From positions 61,571 to 125,570 of the IMG/VR virus record IMGVR_UViG_3300030419_005456: a stretch of DNA of 64,000 nucleotides; one strand, 5' to 3'. The notes under the pieces are model-generated. The model made no database searches. It saw nothing but the letters and a program-made list of their open reading frames with translations, and was not told the origin of the DNA. Of the stretch, positions 6,675 to 50,949 are shown piece after piece; the first letter of the stretch is position 1; the number at the start of each line of letters is the position of its first letter. The translations under genes and the position numbers were made by a program. This DNA comes from a virus.

Positions 6675-8299
6675 TTAATTAATTCTTTTCTTTTCATTTC
6701 CCATGTGTTTCTTCTTTGGCAAAGGTCGGCCATCATTTGATAGGCAATTTCAATATCAAAAGGTTTAAACTCTGGTCTTACAAATTTATAAGAATCTTCA
6801 TTTAAGTACATCTCGCCAGCGCCCTCGATATACATACCATACTGCAAGTCTCTTACCATGCGAGCGTGCATGTAGGTGTTCAACCGCTCTGGTTCTCCAA
6901 GAACATTTACAATTAACCACTCCACATATTCTTTTGGGGGTAAATGACCCGGAACATCTGTAGGCGGATGGTGTATTCTTGGGGGAGATTTCCAAGTCTG
7001 TTCTTCTGGTAGAACTTCTACGCTGTCAAAATATTCTTGCCATTTTTGTGCGGTTTGATCGTAGGAATAGTGTTTCTTAAAGTTGTTGTATACTTTTTCT
7101 CCAAACTTTTGTCTTTCTGCTTCAGGAAGTTCAAAGAATTCTTTTATTGCATTGGCTGTATAGTCATTGTCTGGAATAGCTCTGTTACAGCCTGTCTCCA
7201 ATTCGTTGTATAGAGCTTTAACTTTTAGGGGTATCCCCCCAAGTTTTCTGACTACGCTGCTCATAGCAGAATAGTCCACACTCATTACGGGTACGGCACA
7301 CGCGGCAGCTTCCACTTGTGGTAAACCAAAGCCTTCACTGTTGGCGTATTGTATGTAAAGATCAAAGGTGTTCATTATGCTAGAAAGAAATTCGTAGCTA
7401 ACGCCATTCTTGACGCTGGCTAGACCTGCTGAATTACCACCGCATCTTGAACATTTTGTACGAGCGTCGGCAAAGAAGGACGGAAAGGCATGACCACAAT
7501 CAGCACATACGTATGTAAAAATAACCTTGCTTGATAGTCCGTATTGATTAATAAGTTTGGGGATGTCCCAACCCAAGTCTGGATAACTAGTGTGGCAATA
7601 CAGGTAAACGTCTTGTCTACCACTTTGATCTATAAACTTTCTAAAAGAGTCGAATAGATCTGGAAACAGTTTGCGCCTTTGGTTACGCATGACCGTTCCA
7701 ACTATACTTATGTCCGAATCAAGACCCAAGCTTTCTTTGTGAGCCTTTTTATCTTCTACGGGTTGATAGGCAGCATCTGCTGATGGTGGAGCAGATCCCA
7801 AGCAATTAATCTTTCCGTTGGATTCTTTTTTGAGAATTTCGTATCCCCAGTCAGAATAATTAAAAACACCATTAGCATTAGAATAAGTGGCTACCCATTG
7901 TTCGTTTTGAGGGGCGGCATCAACTGTAGGCATAATAGCCCAGTTAAAAAACTGCCTGAAAGGAGATCTTTCTTGATATTCAAGCATCCAGAAATCTCGA
8001 ATGTCAAAAACAATGTCTGGCCTAAATTCCAGCAAGGCTTCCTCAAATCGCCACTCGCCAAACTGGTTAGTCAGCTTTGAGTTGTACTCATCGACCTCCT
8101 GTTTATTTGTAGTGTCTGGCATGTTAGAATAAAAAGTCCAAGGAGCATTATTTTCGTGATGTTCGCCATAACTAGCAAACTCAGCTAATTCATATTTGCC
8201 GGATTCATAAAGTCTTTTCATTACCTCTCTACCATAAGTGGCATAACCGGTGTTTAGGTAAGTTGCTTCGCCGCAAAATAGTATTCGTTTTTTTCTCAT
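6671..8299 (-). CDS. GT4-like glycosyltransferase with an inserted zinc ribbon
   Basis: 542 aa, longer than usual for the family. The N-terminus ILFCGEATYLNTGYATYGRE and the later YIQYANSEGFGLPQVEAAACAVPV (about residues 316-339) are GT-B signatures. Between them, at residues 265-286, is a CADC...CSRC pair, an apparent treble-clef or zinc-ribbon insertion just before the donor-binding region. The last 110 residues are an extra domain of unknown role. The stop overlaps the next glycosyltransferase start (ATGA). Confidence 0.8.
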   Translation of the reverse strand: MRKKRILFCGEATYLNTGYATYGREVMKRLYESGKYELAEFASYGEHHENNAPWTFYSNMPDTTNKQEVDEYNSKLTNQFGEWRFEEALLEFRPDIVFDIRDFWMLEYQERSPFRQFFNWAIMPTVDAAPQNEQWVATYSNANGVFNYSDWGYEILKKESNGKINCLGSAPPSADAAYQPVEDKKAHKESLGLDSDISIVGTVMRNQRRKLFPDLFDSFRKFIDQSGRQDVYLYCHTSYPDLGWDIPKLINQYGLSSKVIFTYVCADCGHAFPSFFADARTKCSRCGGNSAGLASVKNGVSYEFLSSIMNTFDLYIQYANSEGFGLPQVEAAACAVPVMSVDYSAMSSVVRKLGGIPLKVKALYNELETGCNRAIPDNDYTANAIKEFFELPEAERQKFGEKVYNNFKKHYSYDQTAQKWQEYFDSVEVLPEEQTWKSPPRIHHPPTDVPGHLPPKEYVEWLIVNVLGEPERLNTYMHARMVRDLQYGMYIEGAGEMYLNEDSYKFVRPEFKPFDIEIAYQMMADLCQRRNTWEMKRKELIK

Positions 8300-8802
8300 T
8301 AGATATTAGCGTCTCTTAAAATTTCAATAATATCTCGTATTTTACTAGTTAGTTCTGCTTTGGTGCATGACAGGTATTCACAAATTTCTGCATTTGTAAA
8401 ATTAGATAGTTTCAGCTTCAGTATAAATTTCTGTTCGCTTGTTAGGTAGTCGGGTTCAATCTCAAAAAACGACCGCTTGTCTATAAAGTGCTTGCTAGCA
8501 GACTTCATAAGCTCGTTGTTGTAGAACAGCCTTAGTTTTTTACTGCTCTTCTCTTTTCTTTTTAAAGAAAGTATCTCATTTCTTATACAAACAGATGCGA
8601 ACGTTGAAAACTTCGCTTTGCTTTCGTCATGATTGCGTACAGCTTTTAGCAACCCTATCAATCCCACCTGCACGTAGTCTTCTATAACGCTATTGTCATC
8701 TAAAAAAGAAAGAGCTTGAGAAACAACTAATCCATAATGTTCACGAACCAGTCGATCCTCAAGCTCTTCTTTTTGTTTGCTTGAATCTATCTCATTTTTC
8801 AT
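8299..8802 (-). CDS. Small sigma-70 family RNA polymerase sigma factor
   Basis: 167 aa. Residues about 40-80 match sigma region 2: IEDYVQVGLIGLLKAVRNHDESKAKFSTFAS, with the polymerase-binding helix and the aromatic -10-reading segment. The C-terminal third (TNAEICEYLSCTKAELTSKIRDI) is a degenerate region-4 helix-turn-helix. Regions 1 and 3 are absent, as in T4 gp55 or ECF-like factors. It probably directs host polymerase to phage middle or late promoters; see the repeated GTATAATA box. It overlaps the SSB gene by 11 bases. Confidence 0.85.
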   Translation of the reverse strand: MKNEIDSSKQKEELEDRLVREHYGLVVSQALSFLDDNSVIEDYVQVGLIGLLKAVRNHDESKAKFSTFASVCIRNEILSLKRKEKSSKKLRLFYNNELMKSASKHFIDKRSFFEIEPDYLTSEQKFILKLKLSNFTNAEICEYLSCTKAELTSKIRDIIEILRDANI

Positions 8803-9175
8803 TTAGGACTGCTTGTTGTTTCTCTTCAACTTTATAACCCGTAGGCTCATTGTTGAAGAGTTTGAATTCTTTGACACGAAAACGGGTCTGAAGTCTTTTC
8901 TTTCCGTCTTTGTCTGTCCAAGATTTATTCTTAGCGGAGGTTACAACATCCACGATGTCCCCCTTCTTACAATGGTTTCCCAATGTAACAGCGCCAGAAT
9001 CCCAAGCCTCAAAATCGAAATAGTTTACCGTCTTCTTTTTGTCTCCACCCTTTTCTTTGCGGTATTCATTAATGGCCAGCGTAAATGTAACAAGCTGTGT
9101 GTTATCCAGATTGACCAATTTAGGGTCCGCAGTTAAACGGCCAATAAAGCGACAGTAATTTGAAATTGAATTCAT
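8792..9175 (-). CDS. ssb: Single-stranded DNA-binding protein (first copy)
   Basis: I start at the ATG at 9175 (MNSISNYCRFIGRLTADPKL), which has a GAGGGAG ribosome site; 127 aa. The OB fold is clear: FIGRLTADPKL, LVTFTLAINEY, NYFDFEAWDSGAVTLGNHCKKGD, and a strand ending in RFRVKEFKLF, the usual bacterial SSB order. The C-terminus lacks the acidic DDxPF tip. It should coat single-stranded DNA at the phage fork; it sits directly upstream of the sigma factor and downstream of the polymerase genes. A second SSB is at 56745-57128. Confidence 0.88.
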   Translation of the reverse strand: MNSISNYCRFIGRLTADPKLVNLDNTQLVTFTLAINEYRKEKGGDKKKTVNYFDFEAWDSGAVTLGNHCKKGDIVDVVTSAKNKSWTDKDGKKRLQTRFRVKEFKLFNNEPTGYKVEEKQQAVLNEK

Positions 9176-9255
9176 AGCTCCCTCGTCATTCAAGTGTTGG
9201 TAAAACAAATCCCTTTCATCCTTAATATACCGATCTTAGAAGAATTTTACAACAA

Positions 9256-10833
9256 CTAAAGTTCTAATATTTGATCGACTATTACTCCGTCACGTTCTCC
9301 CTGTACAGATTTTCCAATAATAAGAACATTGTTTCCTGTATATAATAAATTTTTGTAGTTTTCCCAAGGTTCATTAAATACGGTAATGTTTTCAAGAACT
9401 CCTGTTCCATCTTCTACTGCAAGAAAGCCCATCTCTTTACCCTTTTGCTTTCCTTTTTTAGTTATATACTTTCTTATATCTGTTAAGGTAACAGCCAATT
9501 TAACTGGCCCCTCTTTGCCTTGAACAACCTCCTTGCAGGTTGTGTCAGACCTACTTGTGTCGCAAGAATCAACTTTAGAATAAGTAAGGGTTACTCCAAA
9601 GTAGTTCTCTTCTGTACGGGTTATCCATTCTGGATCATCATCCAATGACGAATATGGTTTTTTAAGATGCTCTACAAGATCGCTTACTATTTCGGTGCGA
9701 TTCTTGTTTGCCACACCGCCACCTTCTTTCTTTGGTTTGGAAAGTGCTGTTAGTAGCTCTTGCAAGCTGTCCCAGTTTTTATAATTTTCCAAAGCCCAGT
9801 CAGTCTCTTTGCTGGTTATTTTTTGCCAAGTGTCAAACTCGTCCAGCATTAATTGTCGAGACATTCTTGTATGCGAGAGCATGCCAGTAGAAATTAAAGC
9901 CTTGACTGCTGTGCTTGTTACGTTCTTAGAAAAGCAAACCAAAAATTCATACCATGTCCAGTCGCATATTTTTTTACCGATAAATTCTTCAGCTTTTTTA
10001 ACTTCTGAACTAAGCTCTACGATTTTATTCTTACCAAGAGATTTGACATTACTTAACCCAAAGTGAATCTTGCCGTCAATTATCTCAGTATCCGCATTCA
10101 TATGAGATATGGATGGCGGGTGTATAAAAACATTGTGTATTTTAGCGTCGGATACTAGCTCTCTGACTTCTCTATGTGGGTCTTGTTTTCCGCCGGAGTA
10201 TCTAAGGTAGTTACAATAAAACTCTAGGGGAAAATGTGTTTTTGCGTATGCTGACCAGTATCCACATATGGCATATGAAACCGCATGCGATTTATTAAAA
10301 GCGTACCTGCTTGATTTTTCAATCCAAGAAAATATTTCCTCTGCGGACTCTTTTGAAACAACCTTTTGTTTAGAAGCACCTTCTATAAAGGACTTTTTTA
10401 TCTTTGCCATCAGGTCTGCTTTTTTCTTTCCGATAGCTTTGCGAAGATCGTCAGCTTCTTGTAGATTGAATCCAGCAATAGCCTGAGCTATTTTCATAGA
10501 CTGCTCTTGGTAGACCAGAACGCCCTGCGTATTCTTAAGAATAGGCTCTAGTGACAAATCAATGTAAGTTACACTGTCTTTGCCATTTTTTCTATCTACA
10601 TAGTGTTGCGTTAGGGATTTTTCATCCACAAAGGCTTTTAGGCATCCCGGTCGAATAATTGAAACAAGAGCGGCAAGCTCTTCAATATTTCTTGGCTTGG
10701 CTCGCTTTGCCCAAGACTTGCCGAGACTGCTCTCTAGTTGAAAAACACCCTTCGTTCTTCCAGAGCAGATTAAGTCCCAAGTCGCTTTGTCGTTGTAATT
10801 AATCTCTTTTACATTAAAGGTGGATGTTTCCAT
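9256..10833 (-). CDS. dnaE: DNA polymerase III alpha subunit, C-terminal half (split DnaE)
   Basis: Starting at the ATG at 10833 the protein has 525 aa. It begins just before GVFQLES (residues 29-35), the segment that follows the palm in bacterial DnaE, then runs through LVSIIRPG, VLVYQEQSMKIAQAIAGF, the DDLRKAIGKKK fingers helix and YAFNKSHAVSYA. The final 100 residues form an OB domain (VTLTDIRKYITKKG). The palm aspartates and the PHP domain are in a separate gene at 11702-13627. The two halves together give about 1,166 aa, close to full-length DnaE. It should act only when bound to the other half. Confidence 0.93.
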   Translation of the reverse strand: METSTFNVKEINYNDKATWDLICSGRTKGVFQLESSLGKSWAKRAKPRNIEELAALVSIIRPGCLKAFVDEKSLTQHYVDRKNGKDSVTYIDLSLEPILKNTQGVLVYQEQSMKIAQAIAGFNLQEADDLRKAIGKKKADLMAKIKKSFIEGASKQKVVSKESAEEIFSWIEKSSRYAFNKSHAVSYAICGYWSAYAKTHFPLEFYCNYLRYSGGKQDPHREVRELVSDAKIHNVFIHPPSISHMNADTEIIDGKIHFGLSNVKSLGKNKIVELSSEVKKAEEFIGKKICDWTWYEFLVCFSKNVTSTAVKALISTGMLSHTRMSRQLMLDEFDTWQKITSKETDWALENYKNWDSLQELLTALSKPKKEGGGVANKNRTEIVSDLVEHLKKPYSSLDDDPEWITRTEENYFGVTLTYSKVDSCDTSRSDTTCKEVVQGKEGPVKLAVTLTDIRKYITKKGKQKGKEMGFLAVEDGTGVLENITVFNEPWENYKNLLYTGNNVLIIGKSVQGERDGVIVDQILEL

Positions 10834-11494
10834 CTGCAAAAGCCTTTTCAAATTTAACCGTAGGAGCAAATTTTCTATACAACTTCATAAACCCTATGAG
10901 TAGGTTTGCTGTATCTTTCACATCTTGCAGGGCGTCATGGGCGTTTTCTTTGTCCATGCCAAGCAAGTCTCTCATAGAGTCCATGCTAAGAGACTTAACA
11001 TCTGGATTATTTTCAAACCACATCCATACAGTTTCCAGCAAATCAATCCTGTGAATTCTGTTGAAGATGGTCTGCCGACCCTGCTTGTCAGTAGGGCCGT
11101 ATGCCTCGCACATTCTCTGCACAATAGGCATATCAAAACCGTTGATATTGTAGCCCGCAGCTATCGGGGCAAAATAAGGGGTTTTCTTCCAGTTATACTT
11201 GTTAACAAAGTTGTTAAACTTGCCCCACACAGTTTTTGGAAGAGGGGCTTTTGCAAGCTTCTTCCTATCTTTTCTTGTAATGGCCAAAGCCTCATCTTCA
11301 ACTGGATCAAATCCAGCAGCAACGGCCTTCTCATCGTCCAGTATTGGGCGTATTTCACTATTAAAATACCCTCCCGGTTGCACTGTTAGCTTCCTTCCAT
11401 GAATAGCAACAGCGGCTATTTGCGTGGGTTGCGTTTTGAGAGGATCTCTAGAACCCGTTTCAAAGTCAAAAACAATAATATCTCTATAGTTCAT
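10814..11494 (-). CDS. DnaQ-like 3'-5' proofreading exonuclease (DEDD)
   Basis: 226 aa. Exo I is IIVFDFETGSRDP; Exo II lies in GYNINGFDMPIVQRM; Exo III is ENAHDALQDVKDTANLL with the HxxxxD pair of the DEDDh class. It removes mismatched 3' nucleotides. The gene is inserted between the two halves of the polymerase: its 3' end overlaps the C-half start by 20 bases and its 5' end overlaps a 74-aa gene. A likely proofreading subunit for the split polymerase. AAGGAAAATTAG before the ATG is a good ribosome site. Confidence 0.9.
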   Translation of the reverse strand: MNYRDIIVFDFETGSRDPLKTQPTQIAAVAIHGRKLTVQPGGYFNSEIRPILDDEKAVAAGFDPVEDEALAITRKDRKKLAKAPLPKTVWGKFNNFVNKYNWKKTPYFAPIAAGYNINGFDMPIVQRMCEAYGPTDKQGRQTIFNRIHRIDLLETVWMWFENNPDVKSLSMDSMRDLLGMDKENAHDALQDVKDTANLLIGFMKLYRKFAPTVKFEKAFADGNIHL

Positions 11495-11715
11495 CTAATT
11501 TTCCTTTTTAGATCAAAGAATTTATCTATAGCTTCGTCAACGTCTTCATACAGCACGCTAAATGAATATTTATGAGATTCATTATGAACCTGATATTTTA
11601 TTACATTGTCACGCATTCGATAGTAGTCATTAATTCTACAAATAGACAGAGATTTATATTGTTCATATCTTCCGTTATTAATTTTGTCTTTAATTCTTTG
11701 TCTATGCGTGGACAC
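11491..11715 (-). CDS. Small basic protein between polymerase N-half and exonuclease
   Basis: 74 aa beginning at a GTG (MSTHRQRIKDKINNGRYEQY). It overlaps the stop of the polymerase N-half by 14 bases and the start of the exonuclease by 4. It is rich in Lys, Arg, Asp and Tyr, with a predicted C-terminal helix (DVDEAIDKFFDLKRKI). I recognise no family. Its position suggests it may belong with the replisome, but this is inference only. Confidence 0.6.
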   Translation of the reverse strand: MSTHRQRIKDKINNGRYEQYKSLSICRINDYYRMRDNVIKYQVHNESHKYSFSVLYEDVDEAIDKFFDLKRKIR

Positions 11716-13627
11716 TATTATCTCCCTCTAATTGGTCCCTAATTCCCATAACTTTGTCTAGTAAAGATATACCAAGTATATCAAACTTTACATGACCCAT
11801 TGATTCAAGATCTCCCATTTCCATACCGGCTATTTTTTCTGTTCCTCTCTTGTCTCTAACCATTGGACAGACAGTGTTCAAATTATGTGACGAAATAACA
11901 ACTCCAGCAGCATGCTTACCCTGAGACTTAAACGTACCCTCAAGTCTCATTGCTTGCTCGAACATTTTCGAGTATTCACCCTCTAGAGATCCGTCATCAT
12001 TTAGTCGGCAGTAATCTCTTAATATTTCTGGTTGATTTATTAAAGTCCACTGAATAACTGAGGGGTTATCCATGTCTGCAAGCTGGTCAGAAATTTCATG
12101 CTCATACGGAAGGCTTTTTGTGATCATGTTCATCTCTTCGTATCCACAAGCCTCATTCATTCGCAAGACTTCTTTTATGGCACTTCTACCTTGCAAGCGA
12201 CCAAAAGTTACCATTTGGCTTACTTTTTCATTTCCATACTTCTGTCTAATGTAATTTATTACATCGTCTCGTTTAGAAGCCGGAACATCAATGTCTATAT
12301 CAGGCAAAGATACATGATCTTTAGTGTTTCTTCCGGCGTTGTAAAATCTTTCAAAGATAAGACCATGCTCAATGGGATCAACCTGAGTAACGCCAATTAA
12401 CCATGATATTAAACAGCCAGCAGCAGAACCTCTTCCCGGCCCCGGTATCCAACCATTATCTTTGACTTGGTTTACAATGTCTCTAACTATTAAGAAATAG
12501 CCCGACAGATTGGCTTCCTCTATGACCTTTAGTTCGTTTTTTACACGCTCTCCATACAAGCTCTTTTTGTCGGGAGAATCTATCTTGCTGGTGTTTTGTA
12601 ATTTTGACATCCAGCCTTCTCTGCATAGAGATTTAAGATATTCCTCCTCCGAACCGTGTTTCTCTGGATATTCAAACTCTGGAAGCATAGGGCTTCCTAG
12701 AATATCATAATGCTCACACATGTCAGCTATGTTGGCAGCATTTTCTATTTCGCTTGGTGTGTTGACTCTTTGTATTTCTTCTAAAGAAGGTATGTGAAAA
12801 TTGTGAGATCTCATAAAACCGCTAAAGCCGACATCTTCATTATTTGCGATTTTCGATTTAATTTTCCTGAGCGTGGTCTTCATGGCTGAACACAGAAGTA
12901 ACAGATGATCTCCAGCATCATTTTTTCTTGGGTAATGAGAGTCAGCAGTTGCCACTGTTGCTATCTTTAGTTTTTTCGCTATATACCTCAAACCTTGAGC
13001 TACTAATTTTGCGGCAGGAGAATTTTCTTCGTCGATAGCTTGTATTTCAATAAGAAAATTGTCTTTTCCAAAAGCATCTAAATATATGTAAACCATCTGC
13101 GTTACATTCTCTACCCAGTTTGGGTCGATAAATTTCTTAACGCCAACCTCTGTGTCTTGGTTGTATGCCTGTTTATAATCTGTAAAGATGGCATTTGCTA
13201 AGTCGCTACCAAGATGCCCACTAAACGCAATCAGATTTCCGTTGGCATATTCAGAAAGTCTATTTAGATCAATGCGTGGTTTATAATAGTACAAGTCTTC
13301 ATCGTTACTTCTAGAAACAGCCTCGATTAGACTGTGCCATCCCTTTGCATTTTTTGACAGAACAACCAAATGGCTCAATGATCGGTTCTCTGGACTTTGT
13401 ATAGTGGCGTCCTGTTCGGTAAGATAAAATTCACACCCTAATATTGGCTTGATATTTTTATTCTTACAGGCTTGAGTAAAAGCTACAGCACCAGCCACAG
13501 TTCCATGATCTGTAAGGGCGCAAGATTCATAACCAAGTTCTGAACAACGTTCAGCTATTTGTGAAGGCTTGCTGAGTCCATCGAGAAGAGAGTAGTGCGA
13601 GTGTAGGTGTAGAGGAGTCCAATTCAT
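11702..13627 (-). CDS. dnaE: DNA polymerase III alpha subunit, N-terminal half with PHP and palm (split DnaE)
   Basis: 641 aa. The PHP domain is intact in its metal-binding motifs (LHLHSHYSLLDG at 6-17, ALTDHG). The palm has GPGRGSAAG at 396-404, PDIDIDVP at 442-449 with the two catalytic aspartates, HAAGVVIS at 572-579 and VKFDILGISLLDK at 613-625 with the third aspartate. It ends about 16 residues later, where normal DnaE continues into the fingers. That part is encoded at 9256-10833. No intein residues are visible at the break. It overlaps the nuclease gene upstream by 4 bases. Confidence 0.94.
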   Translation of the reverse strand: MNWTPLHLHSHYSLLDGLSKPSQIAERCSELGYESCALTDHGTVAGAVAFTQACKNKNIKPILGCEFYLTEQDATIQSPENRSLSHLVVLSKNAKGWHSLIEAVSRSNDEDLYYYKPRIDLNRLSEYANGNLIAFSGHLGSDLANAIFTDYKQAYNQDTEVGVKKFIDPNWVENVTQMVYIYLDAFGKDNFLIEIQAIDEENSPAAKLVAQGLRYIAKKLKIATVATADSHYPRKNDAGDHLLLLCSAMKTTLRKIKSKIANNEDVGFSGFMRSHNFHIPSLEEIQRVNTPSEIENAANIADMCEHYDILGSPMLPEFEYPEKHGSEEEYLKSLCREGWMSKLQNTSKIDSPDKKSLYGERVKNELKVIEEANLSGYFLIVRDIVNQVKDNGWIPGPGRGSAAGCLISWLIGVTQVDPIEHGLIFERFYNAGRNTKDHVSLPDIDIDVPASKRDDVINYIRQKYGNEKVSQMVTFGRLQGRSAIKEVLRMNEACGYEEMNMITKSLPYEHEISDQLADMDNPSVIQWTLINQPEILRDYCRLNDDGSLEGEYSKMFEQAMRLEGTFKSQGKHAAGVVISSHNLNTVCPMVRDKRGTEKIAGMEMGDLESMGHVKFDILGISLLDKVMGIRDQLEGDNSVHA

Positions 13628-14637
13628 TTCTTTTTCTCTGCTAAACGGCCACCGCCGTCGCCATAGTTAGAGATATTATCAACATTGCCATATTCAGCAA
13701 CAACTTTATTTATGCCCTTGCGCCTTATCTCATCTCTCATATGTTGACAAACGCTTTTCTTGGAACCCTCTTTATAGGGTTCGCTAAACAGACATAACTT
13801 TCTACATTTCCAATGTGAGTTTTCATTGGATAGCAATCTGGGGTGTTCTTTATTTTTAATATACTGAAACTTCTTCTTCAGTATTTGCTCTGCCTTTTTG
13901 TAATCATCTTCATCAAATACGAGAGAAAAGACTCCACCGTCGTTGATATAAAATATGCTTACATAGAATTCTGCTTCTGGGTACATATTTTTTAGCGCGT
14001 AGTAGTAAAGCAAGAGTTGCGTGTCTTTTTGCAACGCTTCTGGAGTCTTTTCTTCGCCTGTTGCCCAGTTAATTCTCTTTCCGGTTTTATAATCAAGTAT
14101 CTCGTAGTAATTTTCGTCATGCTTGATTATTAGGTCAACAGTACCTTTAATAGAAAGGTTCCCTGTTATTCTTTCTTTACCAATTCTGTAATCGTATTTT
14201 GCCCAAGGTTTATCAATTTCTATGTCGAAAAACTGTTCTGTAGAAAAGACGTTTTGATTTCTTGGATCAAACGATCCGTCACTATATGCTACGGCTTTTT
14301 CTGTCCACTTTATACAAGTTTTTAACTCCGCTTTTCCTAAAACAACATCTGGAAAATTTTCAGTATAAAAGTTAAACGCCCTCTCTGTTAGCTTTGGAAG
14401 ATCATCACATTGTTTTAATGTGAATTTGCCAAGCTCATCATCAGTAAAGCTTTTGTTGCCACGCTGCATGCACAGATTCTTGTCCCCCAATATCTGAAGG
14501 GCTTTGTGTACAATCGTACCCATCAAGGCTTTTTTATTTGTTCTATCCTTGAGAGACAAATTGTATTGCAGAAAATATTTCTGTTCGCAGAATTCTAGAG
14601 TGCCTAGACTACTGCTTCTGTGGTAACAAACTATCAT
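13624..14637 (-). CDS. RecB/Cas4-like PD-(D/E)XK exonuclease with likely Fe-S cluster
   Basis: 337 aa. YHRSSSLGTLEFCEQKYFLQYNL is the N-terminal Cys segment of RecB/AddB-type nucleases; ALMGTIVHKALQIL gives the conserved His; YYEILDYKTGKRINW holds the catalytic D-x-K core. Near the C-terminus WKCRKLC and VCQHM supply three more cysteines, so four cysteines could bind a 4Fe-4S cluster as in Cas4 and AddB. It should degrade or trim DNA ends in phage recombination. Overlaps neighbours on both sides. Confidence 0.85.
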   Translation of the reverse strand: MIVCYHRSSSLGTLEFCEQKYFLQYNLSLKDRTNKKALMGTIVHKALQILGDKNLCMQRGNKSFTDDELGKFTLKQCDDLPKLTERAFNFYTENFPDVVLGKAELKTCIKWTEKAVAYSDGSFDPRNQNVFSTEQFFDIEIDKPWAKYDYRIGKERITGNLSIKGTVDLIIKHDENYYEILDYKTGKRINWATGEEKTPEALQKDTQLLLYYYALKNMYPEAEFYVSIFYINDGGVFSLVFDEDDYKKAEQILKKKFQYIKNKEHPRLLSNENSHWKCRKLCLFSEPYKEGSKKSVCQHMRDEIRRKGINKVVAEYGNVDNISNYGDGGGRLAEKKK

Positions 14638-48181: not shown

Positions 48182-48412
48182 TTATTTAATTACTTCAAGA
48201 ACTTTTAGATCACTAATTTTTGATAGCGAAAACGATTTAACTACATCCTCGCTTTTTACCGTAACAAATGCTCCCTGCTGACCGAACCCAAAATCCACAA
48301 TAGTTCCAACCCTTGGTTTCTCATGGTAAGTAAATGACAGTTTTGCGTCATCTTGTAAAGCACGGCTAAGTAACGGTTTCAACTTACTAAAATTTTCTCC
48401 ACTAATTCTCAT
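48182..48412 (-). CDS. Small protein between rIIA and rIIB
   Basis: 76 aa. VGTIVDFGFGQQGAFVTVKSEDVVKSFSLSKI looks like a small beta-barrel (SH3-like), after a helix at the front. It overlaps the rIIA stop by 11 bases and precedes rIIB by 11. In T4 rIIA and rIIB adjoin directly, so this insertion is notable. No family recognised. Confidence 0.6.
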   Translation of the reverse strand: MRISGENFSKLKPLLSRALQDDAKLSFTYHEKPRVGTIVDFGFGQQGAFVTVKSEDVVKSFSLSKISDLKVLEVIK

Positions 48413-50549
48413 TCTTTTCTCCTATCATATCAACATACTTTGCTAGTTCAATAGTTTCTTCATCTTCCCAGTAGCCGTAAGACCTGTGTTCAACGTACAG
48501 CCCTACTAGTGGAATGGTCTCTAGCATTTGCTCATATTTTTTCTCCCAATCAAAAAGGTTCTCGTTTACTTCAATATCACGGTATTGTAACCTATTCATG
48601 CTGAGTTTACTACATGCCATTTGGTATTTGTCTGCTTCCTCTTGTTTATCAGAATATTTGCTGTACATATCAGCATACTCTTTGAACAATGTAGGAGGGC
48701 TAGAGCAAAGCACCATGATTTTATTTAGGTGCTTCCAAGTTCTATCCGTAGCATGATGATACCAATTCAAAAACTCAGGATACCAAGATTCAATATCGTC
48801 TAAGTATTTAGAGGCAACAACAGTCCTAGCAAAATCTAATGCGTTAATCCACTGTCCATTAGCGTTGAACTTCTTTTGATTAATCGTAGCACTTTTAATG
48901 CCATAGATTTTAATCTCTCCGTTTTCAAGCGCTTCCCTTAACTCATCGTTTCCATGAGACTTGAGAATATTTACCATAGACTGGCATCCTACATAAGCCT
49001 TCACTTTGTTACCATCTTTTCTCTCAAAGATTTCGTAGCGATGTATTTCGACATAGTATCCACCCTCTTGCATGTCAACTTCGGTGTCACGCCAATAACC
49101 TCTATTGCCATCTGTTTCCCAAACGGCAACCTTGCTTCTAGCTACACCACTACCACCACTACTACGCCTGTAAGAAGTTGTACTAGGTAGATCAGATGTC
49201 TTTTTAATTACTTCTGGATTACACCCTAAAACTTCACAGATGGCTTCAACAGTAGTATTCCTGAAGAGGTACATTTCATGCTCGTTCTCTCCATACTTTT
49301 CAGCAGGGATTAAACCTCTTACATACTCTCTACTTCGGCCTATTCCTCCACGCCCCAAGTCGTCGATATATACATGAATTTTCTTTTTGCTAGTAAAGAC
49401 CATTTTGCTTCTATCATCGGACGAGATACTAGTTTTGTAATCATCCTTATAAATATGTTTGACATTAGAACCTTCTGGAAAATTAACAGCCATGCTCCAA
49501 CCCCCGCCTTCCCAGAGGTCTTTATCTTTCCACTTCAACTCGGTATCATCAAAAATACCAGTTAGTTTATTGAGCCAATTACCTCTGTCAGTAAGCTGGC
49601 AGTATTTTATGCGGGCATCCCAGAGGGTTTCAGATGATTCAAAACTTTCGCTAACTACATCTACCATTTCTAATAGCATAGCCTTAACTTTGGACTCAAT
49701 GGCATCTTTCGTATACTTATTATAACTAAGTGCCTCACGACTTGGCGTTATATCTAATTCACCAATTTCAAAATAAATATTAATTGGTGCTTGGCAAATG
49801 GTAAAGATGTCACCTTCAAACACATCTGCCTCAATCGGATAAGCAACCTGCCCCATAATGGCTACGGAATGACCATACCTTTCTGATCTAACCTTCCAGA
49901 AATCACCCTCAACGGTATAGTCGAATTTTTCAACTTCCATTGGATGGCCTAAAAACTCTGGCTGAGTATTGAAGTATTTGTATACCTCTTCAGCTTCGTC
50001 ACAAAATTCACCGCAGTCATATTCATCTACGGCAAATGTTACTTCAACACCATTAGGTTCGGACGTATTACTTTCGTCAAGCAAAGCAAACACGGGTTGG
50101 TCATGCTCATTCTTATAAGCATTATAGGTACGTTTAACACCATTAAAATATGACGTAACAGAAAAGCTATCTGTATATGCAAAAGGGGATTTGCTACCTA
50201 AACCCAAACAGCCAACAGCGTCGTTGGTATTGGTTTTATTTGAACCAAAGTAAGTAGTGTAAAGATTCATACAATCTTCGTGAGACAGACCAGTGCCAAA
50301 GTCACGAATAGAAAAATATTGTTCCATGCGGTGCGGCATGTGGACGACAAAGGGTTTCTCAGGGCATCCAGCATCAACGTGAGAGTCATACGCATTGGTA
50401 GACAGTTCACGGACAACCGCCTTGATCTTATTGGCGTACAGGCCATCTGAGAGAATTGAGAACGCCTTAGCAGACGCTTCAATACTATAGTTAGATTCCT
50501 CGAAGGAACCGGAACGGACAATCGTGTTAGTGTTTTCTTGCAACTTCAT
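48402..50549 (-). CDS. rIIA: rIIA-like protein with GHKL ATPase fold
   Basis: I choose the ATG at 50549 (MKLQENTNTIVRSGSFEES), which has GGAGAG before it, for 715 aa, close to T4 rIIA (725). ELSTNAYDSHVDAG is the N-box, FSIRDFGTGLSHEDC the DxGxG loop and GCLGLGSKSPFAYT the G2 box of the GHKL ATPases. Together with rIIB it should affect the host envelope or lysis timing. A sigma70-like promoter lies upstream. Confidence 0.9.
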   Translation of the reverse strand: MKLQENTNTIVRSGSFEESNYSIEASAKAFSILSDGLYANKIKAVVRELSTNAYDSHVDAGCPEKPFVVHMPHRMEQYFSIRDFGTGLSHEDCMNLYTTYFGSNKTNTNDAVGCLGLGSKSPFAYTDSFSVTSYFNGVKRTYNAYKNEHDQPVFALLDESNTSEPNGVEVTFAVDEYDCGEFCDEAEEVYKYFNTQPEFLGHPMEVEKFDYTVEGDFWKVRSERYGHSVAIMGQVAYPIEADVFEGDIFTICQAPINIYFEIGELDITPSREALSYNKYTKDAIESKVKAMLLEMVDVVSESFESSETLWDARIKYCQLTDRGNWLNKLTGIFDDTELKWKDKDLWEGGGWSMAVNFPEGSNVKHIYKDDYKTSISSDDRSKMVFTSKKKIHVYIDDLGRGGIGRSREYVRGLIPAEKYGENEHEMYLFRNTTVEAICEVLGCNPEVIKKTSDLPSTTSYRRSSGGSGVARSKVAVWETDGNRGYWRDTEVDMQEGGYYVEIHRYEIFERKDGNKVKAYVGCQSMVNILKSHGNDELREALENGEIKIYGIKSATINQKKFNANGQWINALDFARTVVASKYLDDIESWYPEFLNWYHHATDRTWKHLNKIMVLCSSPPTLFKEYADMYSKYSDKQEEADKYQMACSKLSMNRLQYRDIEVNENLFDWEKKYEQMLETIPLVGLYVEHRSYGYWEDEETIELAKYVDMIGEKNEN

Positions 50550-50596
50550 GCTTTCGCTCTCCAAAAATAAATATGCTTTCAACAACCTTACCCCTA

Positions 50597-50624
50597 GTTT
50601 ATCGGCAGGTTCGCAGAAGTCAAT
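50597..50624 (-). promoter_or_regulatory. Sigma70-like promoter before rIIA
   Basis: Minus strand TTGACT (50619-50624), 16 bases, TAAACT (50597-50602). It lies about 50 bases from the rIIA ATG. The -10 is weak (4 of 6). Confidence 0.5.
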
Positions 50625-50667
50625 TACTTTTTTTTGAAATTTGGCGAAAACTTTTTGATTGGGTGTA

Positions 50668-50949
50668 TTATTTGTACTCTGGTAAAATGCCAAGCTCTAT
50701 CATTTGACTACCAACCACCATCATTATAATGTTAGGATTGCTGTTCCATTCACCATCTAAATTAACCTCGTTAAAAGGTAGACTGGTTACTGTACTAAAT
50801 GCTATATCTGTCATTTCGTCTAAATATTTTTCATCCTCTGTCTTATCAAATCTTTTTACTAAACCAACAAACTGTACTATCGCTTCTTGCAAATTTGGAT
50901 TATCATAGCATTTTTTTAATTCATCTACTGATATATCACTAATTTTCAT
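50668..50949 (-). CDS. Unrecognised small protein
   Basis: 93 aa of helices and polar loops (DELKKCYDNPNLQEAIVQFVGLVKRF). No motifs recognised. Overlaps the saccharopine-dehydrogenase-like gene by 4 bases and forms the end of the metabolic cassette. Confidence 0.55.
   Translation of the reverse strand: MKISDISVDELKKCYDNPNLQEAIVQFVGLVKRFDKTEDEKYLDEMTDIAFSTVTSLPFNEVNLDGEWNSNPNIIMMVVGSQMIELGILPEYK

What the first reader, a model, noticed from the sequence alone, without database searches (positions are those of the whole stretch)
9256..13627. Split DNA polymerase III alpha with a proofreading exonuclease gene placed in the gap
The N-half ends about 16 residues after the third palm aspartate (FDILG). 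The C-half starts a few residues before GVFQLES. The break thus falls in the short linker between palm and fingers. In between are a small 74-aa gene and a complete DEDDh exonuclease, all with 4-20 base overlaps. No intein splicing residues are visible at either edge, so the halves probably assemble without being joined, perhaps with the exonuclease. I know of intein-split DnaE in cyanobacteria, but not of this layout.
Basis: partly seen in the sequence, partly recalled or inferred. Interest (0 to 1): 0.75.

Follow-up and report, generated by a model that had tools for sequence, protein, structure and literature searches.

The report
Phage replicase in two gene pieces
A large, uncultured lineage of bacterial viruses makes its DNA-copying enzyme as two separate proteins instead of one and keeps the gene for a proofreading nuclease between the two halves; the layout is old, conserved and under selection, and probably marks a hand-over of proofreading from the polymerase's own domain to the nuclease.

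Summary
DNA polymerase III alpha (DnaE) is encoded as an N-half (PHP, palm, thumb) and a C-half (fingers, HhH, OB), with a 74-aa gene and a DEDDh exonuclease between. It is not an assembly error: 303 of 303 IMG/VR loci with both halves, from searches led by this clade, are split in the same order. Palm aspartates (180/180) and exonuclease residues (155/155) are invariant; all four genes are under strong purifying selection. No intein or missing residue is seen. A tree gives a ladder within one gene neighbourhood: unsplit (L404, L407), then split without exonuclease (L391: macro domain and uracil-DNA glycosylase in the gap), then split with exonuclease (all others). The PHP proofreading site has decayed repeatedly inside the exonuclease clade but is intact in the split relatives lacking it. 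Best reading: the halves assemble non-covalently and the exonuclease is the dedicated proofreader; both are inferred, not shown. Split phage polymerases, including a minimal Pol III alpha in jumbo phages, were already known, so this is a new variant of a known kind.

The parts
11702..13627 (-). N-half of DNA polymerase III alpha: PHP (complete metal motif HHDHEHHDH), palm (D443, D445, D616) and thumb; ends 22 residues after FDILG
11491..11715 (-). Small gene s (74 aa, GTG start); homologues in the same place throughout the window's subclade; AF2 pLDDT 90.9, alpha-4beta-alpha, no known fold match
   Evidence: dN/dS median 0.088
10814..11494 (-). DEDDh 3'-5' exonuclease X (226 aa; D10, E12, D121, H186, D191), the predicted proofreading subunit
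   Evidence: dN/dS median 0.017
9256..10833 (-). C-half of DNA polymerase III alpha: fingers, HhH and OB domains (525 aa from ATG 10833); AF2 pLDDT 86.9, best structural matches all Pol III alpha
10814..10833 (-). 20-nt overlap of exonuclease stop and C-half start, the commonest X-C junction in the clade (60 of 153 loci), suggesting translational coupling
11702..11715 (-). 14-nt overlap of N-half end and small-gene start
13624..14637 (-). Cas4-like PD-(D/E)XK nuclease, conserved upstream neighbour in unsplit and split relatives
8792..9208 (-). SSB, conserved downstream neighbour
8299..8802 (-). Sigma-70 region 2 protein, conserved downstream neighbour
   Evidence: same order read in L391 and L404

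Best explanation
This is a 'genes-in-pieces' replicative DNA polymerase III alpha with an embedded proofreading exonuclease gene. Shown: an ancestral single-chain DnaE in a conserved phage replication module was broken, with no loss of residues, in the loop between palm and fingers, and genes came to lie in the break; the exonuclease clade inherits N-half, exonuclease and C-half as one unit under strong selection. Inferred: the two halves fold separately and dock through the native palm-fingers interface without being ligated; overlapping stop/start codons couple translation of the exonuclease and C-half and favour matched amounts; the exonuclease is the epsilon/DnaQ-like proofreader of this polymerase and has taken over from the PHP site, which several branches have since lost. 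Mobile endonucleases that still enter these junctions, as in T4-like phages, are the likely but unproven cause of the original break.
For: 303 of 303 loci with both halves are split in the order N-(s)-X-C, none fused. Tree: L404+L407 unsplit, then L391 split with macro domain and UDG but no exonuclease, then split plus exonuclease, key nodes 100/100, in the same Cas4 - polymerase - SSB - sigma - glycosyltransferase order. Invariant palm DDD 180/180 and exonuclease DEDDh 155/155. Median dN/dS N 0.037, C 0.035, X 0.017, s 0.088. Co-inheritance: Mantel r N-C 0.88, X-C 0.81, 0/999 permutations. Linker conserved in length. PHP motif complete in all exonuclease-less relatives sampled but one (Pseudomonas Y1), complete in 102 of 180 N-halves of the exonuclease clade and lost in a 68-sequence subclade and several other branches. 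The 125,570-base record holds no family A or B polymerase. Precedent: phage 25 gp43A/43B co-purify with polymerase activity and Aeh1 split NrdA is fully functional (PMC2988022).
Against: No physical evidence that the halves or the exonuclease associate; complexes could not be modelled. No tau-binding C-terminal domain and no phage beta clamp were found, so the holoenzyme is unclear. The record may be incomplete, so another polymerase cannot be fully excluded. No endonuclease lies in the window's own gap, nor in that of the deepest split relative, so the cause of the break is inferred from other relatives.
Confidence: 0.78

Rival explanations
1. The halves are rejoined after all, by trans-splicing inteins, a split intron or programmed frameshifting.
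For: True inteins and endonuclease insertions occur in this gene in relatives: an HNH intein in the C-half of L071 and a LAGLIDADG insertion at the PDIDID site of L187. Gene overlaps could in principle allow frameshifting.
Against: N-half tail and C-half head together equal the normal linker, leaving no room for intein pieces; no intein residues at either edge; complete genes, often several, lie between the halves; the overlap region shows no unusual RNA structure (z -0.04).
Confidence: 0.06
2. The exonuclease is not a proofreader but a recombination, repair or host-DNA-degrading nuclease that shares the operon.
For: Its profile also matches CRN-4 and Exonuclease I; the gap also takes glycosylase, methyltransferase, sugar and endonuclease genes.
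Against: It is the only gap gene present in every member (303/303), the most constrained of the four, coupled to the C-half, matches PHROG 'DNA polymerase exonuclease subunit' (1e-21) and the PolC exonuclease domain best, and its clade is where PHP sites decay.
Confidence: 0.17
3. The split polymerase is a degenerate or accessory enzyme and the phage relies on the host replicase.
For: No own clamp or tau-binding domain was found.
Against: Catalytic residues invariant and dN/dS about 0.04 in both halves; located in a full replication module with SSB, DnaB-like helicase, Toprim primase and RecA-like protein; no other polymerase in the record.
Confidence: 0.04
4. Sequencing or assembly artefact that split one reading frame.
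For: None beyond the general risk in metagenome assemblies.
Against: 162 unique loci from many samples share it, with whole genes between the halves.
Confidence: 0.005

Closest known systems
Split 'minimal' DNA polymerase III alpha of group 2.2 jumbo phages (Iyer et al. 2021, PMC7824862)
   Same: Phage family C catalytic subunit in two proteins, thought to reconstitute one enzyme.
   Different: There it is minimal (core catalytic and template-binding parts only), encoded by distant genes, beside a family B polymerase; here it is full-length with PHP, in one tight cluster, with the exonuclease between and no other polymerase found.
Rossellomorea phage phiT1 (PV767480) gp20/gp19/gp18
   Same: DnaE broken at the same palm-fingers linker, with a small ORF (49 aa) in the gap, by annotation and sequence.
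   Different: No exonuclease in the gap; it sits elsewhere in the tree among unsplit enzymes, so an independent break.
Genes-in-pieces of T4-like phages: Aeh1 nrdA split by mobE, gp43A/gp43B of phages 25 and 44RR (PMC2988022)
   Same: One enzyme as two separate polypeptides that work together without splicing.
   Different: Different enzymes (RNR, family B polymerase); the gap holds an endonuclease or spacer, not a conserved replication gene.
Cyanobacterial intein-split DnaE
   Same: DnaE in two genes.
   Different: From general knowledge: break at KFAEY/CFN in the fingers, distant genes, halves ligated by a split intein; none of these holds here.
PolC and epsilon/DnaQ proofreading exonucleases
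   Same: DEDDh exonuclease tied to a family C polymerase; PHP inactive where the exonuclease proofreads (PMC12926913).
   Different: Encoded inside the broken alpha gene, neither fused into the PHP domain (PolC) nor at a separate locus (DnaQ).

Membership tests
Family C DNA polymerase III alpha (DnaE) | PHP, palm with three catalytic Asp, thumb, fingers, HhH, OB | tested here: met
   OB weak by Pfam, supported by the structural match of the C-half model to full-length alpha chains
Family C DNA polymerase III alpha (DnaE) | C-terminal tau-binding domain | tested here: not met
   C-half ends after the OB fold; the profile stops near Taq residue 1114 of 1220
Family C DNA polymerase III alpha (DnaE) | Polymerase activity | not testable with these tools
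   no bench assay
DnaQ/epsilon-type DEDDh proofreading exonuclease | DEDDh catalytic residues | tested here: met
   155 of 155
DnaQ/epsilon-type DEDDh proofreading exonuclease | Binding to alpha and proofreading activity | not testable with these tools
   inferred from linkage, coupling and PHP decay only
Split-intein DnaE (cyanobacterial) | Intein halves at the break | tested here: not met
   no intein-length extension or motif at either edge
Split-intein DnaE (cyanobacterial) | Break at the CFN site in the fingers | tested here: not met
   break lies between palm and fingers
Phage genes-in-pieces | Gene whole in relatives, broken here without loss of residues | tested here: met
Phage genes-in-pieces | Homing endonuclease in or near the break | tested here: inconclusive
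   absent in the window; Endonuclease VII, HNH or GIY-YIG-type genes in the gaps of several relatives (L056, L049, L012)
Phage genes-in-pieces | Pieces reassemble into an active enzyme | not testable with these tools
   by analogy only
Minimal split Pol III alpha of group 2.2 jumbo phages | No PHP, distant genes, coexists with a family B polymerase | tested here: not met
   PHP present, adjacent genes, no PF00136 match in the record

The most novel reading that the evidence does not exclude
The gap in the polymerase gene is a conserved 'fidelity cassette': N-half, exonuclease (and small protein) and C-half are made by coupled translation and co-assemble into an obligate multi-subunit core in which the exonuclease sits at or near the palm-fingers break, so that proofreading is built into the assembly of the enzyme; the break first held a uracil-DNA glycosylase and later acquired the exonuclease, after which the ancestral PHP proofreader became dispensable.
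Probability: 0.25. Interest if true: 0.8.

Novelty: new variant of a known kind. Interest (0 to 1): 0.6.

Why it matters
It gives a large natural experiment on how a replicative polymerase tolerates being cut in two, with unsplit, split, and split-plus-exonuclease stages preserved in one gene neighbourhood. It also makes testable how proofreading passes from the PHP domain to a DEDDh exonuclease, a central question for family C polymerases. The natural break point, reached at least three times independently, is a practical guide for building split polymerases. Gene callers and phylogenies that treat the two halves as separate or truncated genes will miss this lineage's replicase.

Tried and rejected
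Exonuclease relatives in cultured phages and in bacterial genomes: none close, so host unknown. Small gene s against Pfam, PHROGs, PDB and BFVD structures: no relative; a role as a theta-like partner or endonuclease remnant was considered and left open. Rfam scan of the L187 insertion: no group I intron. RNA structure at the exonuclease/C-half overlap: not unusual. Promoter and terminator scan: no excess over chance. Single-protein scans from L163, L170 and a fecal phage were too narrow to find intermediates; an alignment led by an unsplit phage succeeded. The idea of a missing linker was rejected by length.

Full report
What is there. On the - strand, in order: a 641-aa N-half of DNA polymerase III alpha (13627-11702), a 74-aa gene (11715-11491), a 226-aa DEDDh exonuclease (11494-10814) and a 525-aa C-half (10833-9256). 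Neighbouring genes overlap by 14, 4 and 20 nt. The N-half carries PHP, palm and thumb; the C-half fingers, HhH and a weak OB match. Small corrections: 22, not 16, residues follow FDILG, and the C-half has 28 residues before GVFQLES. From the third palm aspartate to the Q of FQLE the window has 25 + 32 = 57 residues, against 50-64 in five unsplit phage enzymes: the chain was cut, not shortened.

Not an artefact. Searches of IMG/VR with both halves and the exonuclease gave 303 loci holding both halves; all are split, all in the order N-(s)-X-C, none fused. After removing duplicates 162 loci remain with N, exonuclease and C. These searches were led by members of the clade, so they are biased towards it; a later search led by an unsplit phage gave 55 fused, 24 split with exonuclease and 2 split without.

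Evolutionary ladder. In a tree of 38 polymerases L404 and L407 (unsplit) are sisters to all others of the lineage (100/99), L391 (split, no exonuclease) branches next (100/100), then all split-plus-exonuclease members (100/100). L391 and L404 keep the window's gene order: Cas4-like nuclease, polymerase, SSB, sigma factor, two glycosyltransferases. In L391 the gap holds a macro-domain protein and a uracil-DNA glycosylase (Pfam 4e-12 and 2e-34). No exonuclease of this family was found in the records of L404, L407 or L391, but these are fragments. Glycosylases are also read in the gaps of L132 (Pfam-confirmed) and, by motif, of L165, L191, L214, L215, L217, L218, L221, L231 and L247. Gap content varies: the window-type small gene, two other unrelated small-protein types, glycosylase, or nothing but the exonuclease (L222, L230, L239, L251). 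Only the exonuclease is invariant.

Independent breaks. Cultured Rossellomorea phage phiT1 and the IMG/VR locus L401 are split at the same linker but lie among unsplit enzymes in another part of the tree, so this linker has been broken at least three times. It is a tolerant site.

Function of the pieces. The palm aspartates are invariant in 180 N-halves, the DEDDh residues in 155 exonucleases, and the main fingers residues nearly so in 149 C-halves. Median dN/dS is 0.037 (N), 0.035 (C), 0.017 (exonuclease) and 0.088 (small gene) over 30-38 close pairs. Distances of N, C and exonuclease are strongly correlated (Mantel r 0.78-0.88, 0 of 999 permutations), as expected of one inherited unit. AlphaFold2 gives the C-half pLDDT 86.9 and its 14 significant structural matches are all Pol III alpha. 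The record has no family A or B polymerase and no beta clamp, though it may be incomplete.

Proofreading. The published criterion for an active PHP site is HHDHEH[C/H]DH (PMC12926913). The window has HHDHEHHDH. Across the exonuclease clade 102 of 180 N-halves keep it; a 68-sequence subclade has lost it together with about 110 residues of the domain, and several other branches have lost it separately. All sampled relatives without the exonuclease keep it except Pseudomonas phage Y1. The exonuclease site is never lost. The simplest reading is that the exonuclease is the proofreader and the PHP site became dispensable. This matches what that paper reports for bacteria, where it is the PHP site and not DnaQ that decays.

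Coupling. The exonuclease stop and C-half start overlap by 20 nt in 60 of 153 loci, by 8 nt in 19 and by 4 nt in 12, which suggests translational coupling. RNA folding at this overlap is ordinary. In loci with a foreign gene between exonuclease and C-half, the inserted gene often begins with what looks like the C-half's own first codons (METSTY in L097 and L108, MQMETCTY in L056).

Mobile elements. Endonuclease VII, HNH and GIY-YIG-type genes sit in the gaps of several relatives (L056, L049, L012), a true HNH intein interrupts the C-half of L071 at RPG/C, and a LAGLIDADG gene interrupts the N-half of L187 at the PDIDID site. This locus attracts homing elements, and in T4-like phages such elements do break genes (PMC2988022). 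That they caused this break is plausible, not shown: in the deepest split relative the gap holds no endonuclease.

Comparison with what is known. Split phage polymerases are established: gp43A/43B of phage 25 co-purify and polymerise, and split NrdA of Aeh1 is fully functional (PMC2988022); split DNA polymerases with a small ORF occur in OM43 phages (PMC10580990); a split-intein PolB occurs in MIJ3 (PMC6892783); and a minimal Pol III alpha in two distant genes occurs in group 2.2 jumbo phages beside a family B enzyme (PMC7824862). The present system differs in being a full PHP-bearing alpha in one tight cluster with its exonuclease inside the break. I found no description of that layout in the papers searched, a library that lacks most subscription journals.

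What is shown and what is inferred. Shown: the layout, its conservation, the ladder, the selection, the absence of intein sequence, the PHP decay. Inferred: non-covalent assembly, coupling, the proofreading role, and the origin of the break.

Noticed in passing
L071:5911-8304: C-half carries an in-frame intein with HNH motif (Pfam Intein_splicing 1e-10) at RPG/C...HN/C in the fingers.
   Followed up: partly
L187:4330-5560 (also L180, L184, L188-L190): N-half is interrupted exactly at HIS/MPDIDID, the catalytic palm motif, by about 1 kb with a LAGLIDADG endonuclease; exons would join perfectly, but no Rfam intron model matches. Either an unrecognised intron or a three-piece polymerase.
   Followed up: partly
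L391:4882-5917: Macro-domain protein and uracil-DNA glycosylase in the polymerase gap of a deep-branching relative; its N-half also carries an in-frame insertion of about 100 aa just before PDID.
   Followed up: partly
C-half N-termini of L006, L008, L053, L079, L132, L172, L311, L391 and others: Conserved CGC motif (usually F-x-C-G-C-x-F) in a 25-45 aa extension at the start of most C-halves, lost in the window's own group; possibly metal-binding or a docking element.
   Followed up: no
L097:6665-7402, L108:6665-7420, L056:5625-5993, L050:5273-5968: Genes inserted between exonuclease and C-half begin with a copy of the C-half's first codons (METSTY, MQMETCTY, MANSTF), as if the insertion took over its start site.
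   Followed up: no
L049:5516-5986: HNH gene in the gap begins MNLKQLTLFELPE, which resembles a sliding-clamp binding motif.
   Followed up: no
L320 (Microbacterium phage Rachella) and L322 (Lysinibacillus phage LC76P1): DnaE broken at other points: near the PHP/palm border in Rachella and around the palm DxD motif in LC76P1.
   Followed up: partly
L023, L032, L037, L063: Nucleotide-sugar and glycosyltransferase-like genes inserted in the polymerase gap, read from sequence only.
   Followed up: no
window 48402-50693: 763-aa protein with no Pfam match.
   Followed up: no
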